A stretch of 64,000 nucleotides of DNA from Macrophomina tecta (taxonomy: Eukaryota > Ascomycota > Dothideomycetes > Botryosphaeriales > Botryosphaeriaceae), in the NCBI GenBank assembly GCA_024180945.1, contig JAKSGN010000002.1, positions 3,286,001 through 3,350,000 of the forward strand. Reading direction: 5' to 3'. A model generated the notes under the pieces. It saw only the letters and a list, made by a program, of their open reading frames with translations, was not told where the DNA came from and made no database searches. The number at the start of each line of letters is the position of its first letter. Within the stretch, counting starts at the first letter, position 1. Shown here one piece after another: positions 40,866-62,087 of the stretch. The position numbers were made by a program, and so were the translations under genes.

Positions 40866-41091
40866 TGTTACGACCCAGGAAAGAGGAACACGGTGGGGGC
40901 GCTGAGGGCAATGCAGGATGGGCACCGCCGGATTATCTGGCGCCGTCCCGAGCCCCGTTGGCCAGGCCACGTGACCTTCAGTGCACGTCCCCGGCCAATG
41001 GCCAACCCACTGGCCAAACAACACCACGCCTCTGGCCAGCAGAAATAGCGCTCCTTGTCCCTATGGTCTGCTGAGGCCGACGGGGTGTATG

Positions 41092-41122
<31 letters not shown>

Positions 41123-41320
41123 TGGCCAGCAGATGGCCAACCAGACTGATGTATATAATCACACTCGCTACAATAGATAGGACCCCTGTGGTCAACTTGT
41201 CAATTGATTCCTACCCTAACCTTGTGCACGAACCTCCCCTGCCTACTGCAACGGCCCCCAGAAAGCCTGAGCCACCCGACGATACGCCCAACCTCCCCCA
41301 GAAAGAGTAACGGCGTAACA
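40866..41320 (+). mobile_element. solo-LTR-like block carrying the mini-element
   Basis: It begins TGTTACGACCC and ends GGCGTAACA, the TG...CA ends with 7-bp inverted repeats (TGTTACG/CGTAACA) expected of a fungal LTR. These ends match the LTRs at 47,178-47,502. A TATATAA at 41,151 could be its promoter box. No target duplication is visible at the flanks, so it may be old or a recombinant. Without the mini-element and its duplication it would be about 365 bp. Confidence 0.5.
41044..41120 (+). mobile_element. TCA-tailed mini-retroposon, copy 1
   Basis: The insert is about 77 bp and is flanked by a perfect 13-bp direct repeat, tctggccagcaga, at 41031-41043 and 41121-41133. Its body (41,046-41,092) contains ttgtccctatggtctgctga and ccgacggggtgtatga, and it ends in about nine ATC/TCA units that abut the second repeat. 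A second copy with a different duplication lies at 61,413. Confidence 0.85.
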
Positions 41321-60732: not shown

Positions 60733-61412
60733 ATTTTCCACGTCTCTGGAGTAATGGAGTTTCGGATGGATATGTCATTGTTCTACGGTTCTTTTGACTT
60801 ATTGCTTGATACCCCTTTATTTAAGACTGGTTGTTGCGGACGCTTAGGGCCGTTCTTATATAGGCTTGATAGATATCACTTTGCGACATTCTCGATGGCT
60901 AGATGAAGTTTTTACGCTGTATCTACTAAAGCTGGTTATTCTAGCGTTGCTCTTGCAGAAGCCTGTCTCTCAGGCCAGATACTGACTCTCGGCGAGAGGG
61001 CGAAGTAGAGGGCGAAGTAGAGGGTCAGAAAAAACGCTTAACGAGCAAGCTTTGACGCACGGCGTCACAATGAGTTGTACGTAGCTCGCGATCTCCCATA
61101 AGTTGCGAAATAGTCCATGTGTAGAAAGATGGTGGGAGACATCGGGGACTCTATAGAAAAGCCACCTACGTCAGCTGGAGGCCCACGATCATCGGCGGAT
61201 GTGTCACGCACTGACCACGTGGGCCACAGCGATCAGTCAGAATCCTCGTCAATATTCGCCGAGCCTTCCGCAGCCCTACCAAAATCTGCGCCTTCCCCAG
61301 CTAACGCGCTCGAGGGTACAATTTGCTCGTGCATCCTATCTCATCTCTCACGTGCTCGCGCAGATCCGCTCTCCCAAGCCGGGCACCTTCGCGCAAGTCC
61401 GGCACCCAGTAA
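60733..61412. other. intergenic stretch after FunK1
   Basis: A direct repeat of agagggcgaagt occurs at about 60,996-61,021. No gene is supported. The first copy of the target duplication of the second mini-element ends the stretch (61398-61412). Confidence 0.4.
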
Positions 61413-61475
61413 TAGTGTTCTTTGTCCCTATGGTCTGCTGAGGCCGACGGGGTGTATGAATCATCATCATCATCA
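61413..61475 (+). mobile_element. TCA-tailed mini-retroposon, copy 2
   Basis: A 63-bp insert flanked by a perfect 15-bp direct repeat, tccggcacccagtaa, at 61398-61412 and 61476-61490. From 61,424 to 61,465 it is identical to copy 1 (ttgtccctatggtctgctga, ggccgacggggtgtatgaat). It differs at a few bases near the 5' end and has a shorter TCA tail. Confidence 0.88.
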
Positions 61476-62087
61476 TCCGGCACCCAGTAAGTAGAATACA
61501 ACCACGAATAGACTCGAAGTCACATTCGTAAAGCATTTAGCTAGGTAAATTGGCTATATAGGCTTAATACGTCTTCCTCGTGCGTTGTAAGGGCGCGTTG
61601 CGCAGGACCTCGATTCTGCCTTGGCGGATAGGGCTCGCCCCACACCTTTATGCTCCTCTGGATGCGGAATACGGTGCGTTCAGTACACTTGGCGGCGGCT
61701 GCAATGGCTCCTGGCTGCCACGAGGCGAGGAGGCAGTCAAGGATTGTAGTAATCTGATGCTCGGCGAGGCCCCCCGGGGGGGGGGGGATGTTGGAGAGGC
61801 TGCACGACGAGGAGGAGGCGTAACACCAAGGAGGAGACGCTCAACACCAAGGAAAGTCGCTTTGGACGAGTATGCGCGCGTAGTTGAGCGTGATATTGCT
61901 GGGAGGACGCGTTCTCGCGTGTTTTGGGAGGCGCGTGGGGGAAAATTTCAGGGAACGGTCCACTGACAGTTAAGGTGCAAAACCCGGTAGAGTGTCGGCT
62001 ACTCGTATACGAGTAGTCCCGAGGCACGAGGGATTGCGATGAATAAGCAGGCTTATTGAGAAGCAACCATTGGCTACGATTACTATC
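61476..62087. other. intergenic stretch
   Basis: Contains a run of C followed by 12 G (61,770-61,787) and a perfect 18-bp palindrome ctactcgtatacgagtag (61,999-62,016). An Arg/Gly-rich plus-strand frame at 61,580-61,966 has no domain. The end is the 3' flank of the ankyrin gene. Confidence 0.4.

What the first reader, a model, noticed from the sequence alone, without database searches (positions are those of the whole stretch)
41031..41133. A 60-80 bp TCA-tailed retroposon-like element, copy 1, with a 13-bp target duplication
The same short unit occurs here and at 61,398-61,490, and each copy sits inside its own, different, perfect direct repeat (13 and 15 bp). That is the mark of two independent insertions. 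The variable 3' (TCA)n tail next to the second repeat and the lack of terminal inverted repeats point to target-primed reverse transcription by a LINE, not to a DNA transposon. At about 50 bp of body it would be one of the smallest retroposons I know of. The body has no tRNA A/B boxes that I can see, so its source RNA is unknown.
Basis: seen in the sequence. Interest (0 to 1): 0.88.

Follow-up and report, generated by a model that had tools for sequence, protein, structure and literature searches.

The report
Two tiny truncated LINE retrotransposon copies
The two short repeats are very short tail ends of a known kind of jumping gene (a LINE) that were copied into new places, not a new miniature element, although many relatives land at the same few spots in another repeat.

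Summary
In detail: bodies of 50 and 48 bp with (TCA)9 and (TCA)5 tails sit inside 13- and 15-bp perfect repeats. Paralogous sites in the same genome lack the units and carry the repeat once: 8 fetched for copy 1, 1 for copy 2. Both are real insertions.

The reading "smallest retroposon, source RNA unknown" fails. The 3' end recurs at 162 places. Of 120 sequence-distinct copies examined, 73 continue at least 185 nt upstream; the longest reach a LINE with endonuclease and reverse transcriptase. The window units are 5'-truncated LINE copies from two sublineages. Truncation points are spread, and seven copies are shorter still.

The last 36 nt are 89-97% identical between LINE subfamilies whose preceding 3' UTR is near random identity, suggesting a recognition end; a hairpin there has no covariation support.

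The surprise lies beside the finding: 29 of 118 LINE 3' junctions fall in one LTR-like repeat, bunched at a few nucleotides. New member of a known kind.

The parts
41031..41043 (+). Copy 1, 5' target-site duplication (13 bp)
   Evidence: perfect repeat of 41121-41133; present once in 8 fetched empty paralogues
41044..41093 (+). Copy 1, body: last 50 nt of a LINE 3' UTR
   Evidence: identical over 50 nt to the long copy L002
41094..41120 (+). Copy 1, (TCA)9 tail
   Evidence: sequence
41121..41133 (+). Copy 1, 3' target-site duplication
61398..61412 (+). Copy 2, 5' target-site duplication (15 bp)
   Evidence: perfect repeat of 61476-61490; one copy, 14 of 15 letters the same, in the empty paralogue L148
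61413..61460 (+). Copy 2, body: last 48 nt of a LINE 3' UTR
   Evidence: identical over 48 nt to 20 of 119 other copies
61461..61475 (+). Copy 2, (TCA)5 tail
   Evidence: sequence
61476..61490 (+). Copy 2, 3' target-site duplication

Best explanation
Each unit is a severely 5'-truncated copy of a LINE (non-LTR retrotransposon) that this genome holds in many copies, four of them with an open, about 100% identical ORF2. The LINE endonuclease nicks the target, the nicked 3' end pairs with the (UCA)n tail of the LINE RNA, reverse transcription starts there and stops after about 50 nt of body, and repair of the staggered break leaves the 13-15 bp duplication. Shown here: insertion, duplication, 3' end shared with an endonuclease/RT LINE, spread truncation points, microhomology at the 3' junction. 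Inferred: the enzyme steps, and that the conserved last 36 nt are what the LINE protein recognises.
For: Empty paralogues with one repeat. 162 genome places with the 3' core. Long copies continue into LINE frames, with Exo_endo_phos_2 and RVT_1 in ORF2. 16 of 118 copies have a direct repeat of 11 nt or more within 250 nt (control mean 0.42, maximum 2); in 12 of the 16 its edge agrees within 6 nt with the edge of homology. Two source sublineages. 3'-junction overlap with the TCA phase averages 2.24 nt at 17 scored of 19 sites, against 0.80 for random junctions.
Against: No mobility was observed. 100 of 118 copies show no repeat of 9 nt or more in the 250 nt held; many are longer than that, but several short ones (such as L057, L048, L094) have a sharp homology break without a repeat beside it. 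One repeat (L121) disagrees with the homology edge. The 3' hairpin has no covariation support.
Confidence: 0.97

Rival explanations
1. A separate non-autonomous retroposon (mini-SINE of about 50 bp of body) that borrows the LINE's 3' end and is copied from its own small RNA.
For: Copies 1 and 2 and L058 break within about 3 nt of one another. L081 and L093 share a break point and an internal deletion.
Against: Among the retained direct-repeat copies the bodies run from 27 to 251 nt. The window copies match different LINE sublineages exactly. No Rfam family matched in the window.
Confidence: 0.02
2. The unit is a DNA transposon or MITE.
For: Short, repeated, flanked by direct repeats.
Against: No inverted repeats; duplications vary in length from 11 to 15 nt between copies; variable simple-repeat tail; one-sided (5') truncation.
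Confidence: 0.005
3. The direct repeats pre-existed and the unit reached these places by recombination between LINE copies.
For: The site of copy 1 lies in a repeat family.
Against: Eight fetched paralogues of site 1 and the one of site 2 have the repeated word once and no unit; the eight were chosen because both flanks matched side by side, and three of them are nearly identical to one another.
Confidence: 0.005

Closest known systems
5'-truncated fungal LINE copies, such as MGL of Magnaporthe grisea (PMC2104539, passages seen)
   Same: 5' truncation, 10-20 bp target duplications, microsatellite-like 3' end, LINE as source
   Different: Tail is (TCA)n; the window copies are very short; no chimera with another RNA was seen in the two window copies
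Tad-clade LINEs, such as LINE-Tad-RtPc5 of Paracoccidioides (PMC4427930, passages seen)
   Same: Two ORFs; ORF2 of about 1310-1320 aa with endonuclease, reverse transcriptase and an RNase H region
   Different: RtPc5 is described with a poly(A) tail, this family ends in (TCA)n; no phylogeny could be made here
Stringent-type LINEs with a recognised 3' tail, such as UnaL2 and ZfL2 (PMC4176376, passages seen)
   Same: A conserved 3' end next to a short tail, kept while the rest of the 3' UTR diverges
   Different: Recognition untested here; a hairpin folds but without covariation support
SINEs of fungi (PMC5063351, listing and start of abstract only)
   Same: Short units with direct repeats
   Different: No fixed 5' end; the sequence is the LINE itself

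Membership tests
5'-truncated LINE insertion | 3' end shared with a LINE that encodes endonuclease and reverse transcriptase | tested here: met
5'-truncated LINE insertion | target-site duplication made by the insertion | tested here: met
   perfect repeats and single word in empty paralogues
5'-truncated LINE insertion | variable 5' truncation, constant 3' end | tested here: met
SINE | fixed 5' end | tested here: not met
   bodies of 27 to 251 nt in the 15 retained direct-repeat copies
SINE | RNA polymerase III promoter boxes or small-RNA-derived head | tested here: inconclusive
   no Rfam match in the window; no separate promoter-box or tRNA scan was run
Tad1-clade LINE | AP-type endonuclease + RT + RNase H in ORF2 | tested here: met
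   Exo_endo_phos_2 and RVT_1 in L047; RNase_H 2.9e-14 in the relative L050, but only 4.3e-4 and below the Pfam cut-off in L047
Tad1-clade LINE | RT phylogeny within the Tad1 clade | not testable with these tools
Stringent-type LINE | conserved 3' stem-loop recognised by ORF2 | tested here: inconclusive
   sequence conserved; fold z -0.96; 0 pairs with a change on both sides among 49 distinct sequences; binding not tested

The most novel reading that the evidence does not exclude
This LINE is partly target-specific: different subfamilies insert again and again at the same few nucleotides of one LTR-like repeat family and of a diverged relative (the site of copy 1), so an AP-endonuclease LINE would be using LTRs of another retrotransposon as landing pads.
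Probability: 0.4. Interest if true: 0.55.

Novelty: new member of a known kind. Interest (0 to 1): 0.3.

Why it matters
It removes a candidate 'smallest retroposon' and shows what such units are: LINE copies cut down to little more than a conserved 3' end. The very short copies, with empty sites at hand, show how little of a LINE is needed at an insertion, and the recurrent landing points in an LTR-like repeat make the target choice of this LINE directly testable.

Tried and rejected
Mini-SINE: rejected because 5' ends are spread and long LINE copies continue upstream. MITE: no inverted repeats. Known small RNA: no Rfam match in the window. The common start of nearly all copies in the first genome search (query position 14-15) is an artefact: the query is itself truncated there.

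3' hairpin: it folds in both window copies but 27 of 200 shuffles do as well (z -0.96), and no pair changes on both sides (6 loci with short or shifted 3' modules were left out before the count). Kept as a possibility only.

Direct repeats: of 18 found at 9 nt or more, the two 9-mers (L071, whose edge disagrees with homology at 22 against 134 nt, and L067) are treated as chance or unproven. Of the 16 at 11 nt or more, 12 agree with the homology edge within 6 nt, 3 (L045, L060, L019) lie beyond the 185-nt limit of the list, and L121 disagrees (222 against 125) and was dropped.

The first impression that LTR-associated insertions lie in one orientation was corrected by mapping on the repeat: 8 sense and 18 antisense.

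Literature: seven answered searches, of which I saw the listings; none showed a paper that I recognised as describing this LINE or its target preference. The library is open-access only, and Repbase was not available, so this says little. PMC12857005 (telomeric LINEs of Fusarium) was looked at in passages and differs: no mention of a TCA tail, telomere targets.

Full report
What is there. Copy 1 is a 50-nt body (41044-41093) plus (TCA)9 (41094-41120) between two copies of TCTGGCCAGCAGA. Copy 2 is a 48-nt body (61413-61460) plus (TCA)5 (61461-61475) between two copies of TCCGGCACCCAGTAA. The 27-nt core GAGGCCGACGGGGTGTATGAATCATCA occurs twice in the window, and 100 shuffles gave none.

Genome copies. 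The window lies in an assembly of 54.1 Mb in 37 contigs. The core occurs at 162 places at up to 3 mismatches, and the reversed pattern at none (100 of the places were listed). A 22-nt core occurs at 105 places. Merging places with an identical stretch around the core left 120 sequence-distinct copies, 118 of them with enough 3' flank.

Source. Most of the copies seen do not stop where the window copies stop but run on upstream. By alignment among the 120 copies, 73 extend at least 185 nt, taking the third-best partner so as to discount duplicated loci. Long ones carry LINE reading frames. L047 has an open ORF2 of 1317 aa with Exo_endo_phos_2 and RVT_1, which matches human L1 ORF2p and R2 proteins among solved structures. 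RNase_H is weak there (4.3e-4, below Pfam's cut-off) but clear in the relative L050 (2.9e-14); a zf-RVT match is below its cut-off in both. A 297-aa upstream frame has only a sub-threshold zinc knuckle (0.78). The own-genome search with ORF2 lists 39 matches (35 of 427 first-look candidates were scored): four places (C22, C25, C36, C7) are open at about 100% identity, others carry up to 20 TAG stops, and one group is only 55-58% identical. The family is thus diverse and was recently active.

The window copies are LINE stubs. Copy 1 is identical over 50 nt to one of the 119 other copies, the long copy L002. Copy 2 is identical over 48 nt to 20 of 119, of which 17 are not in the short list. The two bodies differ at 3 of 46 positions. 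They derive from two LINE sublineages and are independent events.

Empty sites. The 5' flank of copy 1 matches 14 places and its 3' flank 36, itself included. Eight places where both flanks match side by side were fetched, and all eight read straight through with the target word once and no unit; three of the eight (L139-L141) are almost identical to one another. Four 5'-flank matches without an adjacent 3' match were not fetched. The flank of copy 2 has one other match, also empty, with one word that differs from the duplicated word at its last letter. At a further paralogue of site 1 (L147, C12:433240-435400) an insert of about 1.8 kb, ending in the 3' end of another LINE subfamily, sits at the nucleotide where copy 1 sits, inside its own 14-bp duplication.

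Duplications. Within 250 nt upstream, 16 of 118 copies have a direct repeat of 11 nt or more; shuffling flanks among copies gives 0.42 on average and at most 2 in 50 shuffles (at 9 nt or more: 18 against 1.64, maximum 5). For 12 of the 16 the repeat edge agrees within 6 nt with the edge of homology; 3 lie beyond that list's range and one (L121) disagrees and was dropped. The bodies of the 15 retained run from 27 to 251 nt. By homology seven copies have bodies of 26-37 nt. Searching all upstream sequence held, at 12 nt or more, finds 18 copies, three of them new (no shuffled control for this search).

Junction. At 17 scorable of 19 sites the duplicated target continues the TCA phase of the tail by 2.24 nt on average (16 of 17 by at least 1 nt). 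Random junctions in the 19 sites give 0.80 (5000 draws, maximum mean 2.0) and 9.1 of 19 with at least 1 nt. L060 and L017 could not be scored because their tails leave the TCA phase. This fits priming by a target end paired with the (UCA)n tail; the step itself is inferred.

Conserved 3' end. In seven subfamily pairs that I chose, the last 36 nt are 89-97% identical without gaps, while the preceding 154 nt align at 55-58% with gaps, against 48-49% for shuffled letters. A hairpin folds in both window copies, but no better than expected. In 49 distinct sequences 91.6% of cells pair, but no pair changes on both sides and shuffles reach the same level. Recognition by the LINE protein, as in stringent-type LINEs (PMC4176376, passages), is therefore an analogy supported by sequence conservation alone.

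Target choice. An LTR-like repeat (two copies 7.3 kb apart, 99.8% identical over 493 nt) has a terminal motif that occurs at 332 places (up to 2 mismatches, reversed control 1). It receives 29 of 118 LINE 3' junctions at E 1e-6 or better. Dropping one of each near-identical flank pair leaves 26: 8 in sense at repeat positions 454-473, and 18 antisense at 78-80 (5), 261-324 (11) and 341 (2). Same-strand pairs within 3 nt number 23, against 2.3 at random (maximum 11 in 10,000). Different LINE subfamilies share the spots at 78-80 and 341. Against a strong claim: positions are extrapolated from where the match starts, uniform landing and independence are assumed, and remaining copies may still be duplicates of one locus. 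Also, of the seven copies that have both a 3' junction in the repeat and a 5' flank in the set of 42, only three (L006, L019, L048) show the repeat on the 5' side in the matching orientation. The site of copy 1 lies in a diverged relative: the 3' flank of L092, the same target, matches the repeat at 77%. That the repeat is an LTR is inferred from paired spacing; no internal genes were read.

Verdict. The claim of a new minimal retroposon with unknown RNA is not borne out. The units are ordinary in kind and unusual only in shortness; the target preference deserves a study of its own.

Noticed in passing
L149:11-503 (G000:C6:4291575-4292067) and 29 LINE loci: An LTR-like repeat is a recurrent landing place for the LINE: 29 of 118 junctions, bunched at repeat positions 78-80, 296-324, 341 (antisense) and 454-473 (sense), with different LINE subfamilies at the same nucleotide.
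   Followed up: partly
L147 (G000:C12:433240-435400): An insert of about 1.8 kb ending in another LINE subfamily's 3' end occupies, in a paralogous repeat, the nucleotide that copy 1 occupies in the window, with a 14-bp duplication.
   Followed up: partly
G000:C22:1 and G000:C36:1 (L033, L047): Two contigs begin inside the (TCA) tail of an identical full-length LINE copy; probably the assembly breaks where a long repeat ends, but an end-of-chromosome position was not excluded.
   Followed up: no
L017 (G000:C10:464609-464686): The tail passes from TCA into TTC repeats and the target itself begins CTTCTTG, as if the target end had slipped during priming.
   Followed up: no
L047 ORF2, C-terminal third (L047:358-1731:-): The RNase H region reads IFTGG and YSNS where, from memory, RNase H has aspartates, and scores below Pfam's cut-off, whereas the relative L050 scores well; the youngest subfamily may have a decayed RNase H.
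   Followed up: partly
G000:C7:1108173-1112030 and others: Older ORF2 copies carry up to 20 TAG stops, and L039 shows G-to-A changes against L042, which looks like repeat-induced point mutation.
   Followed up: no
L081 and L093: Two short copies with different targets share both a break point and an internal deletion in the GATTAGCGTA tandem, so a small sub-lineage of short copies cannot be excluded.
   Followed up: no
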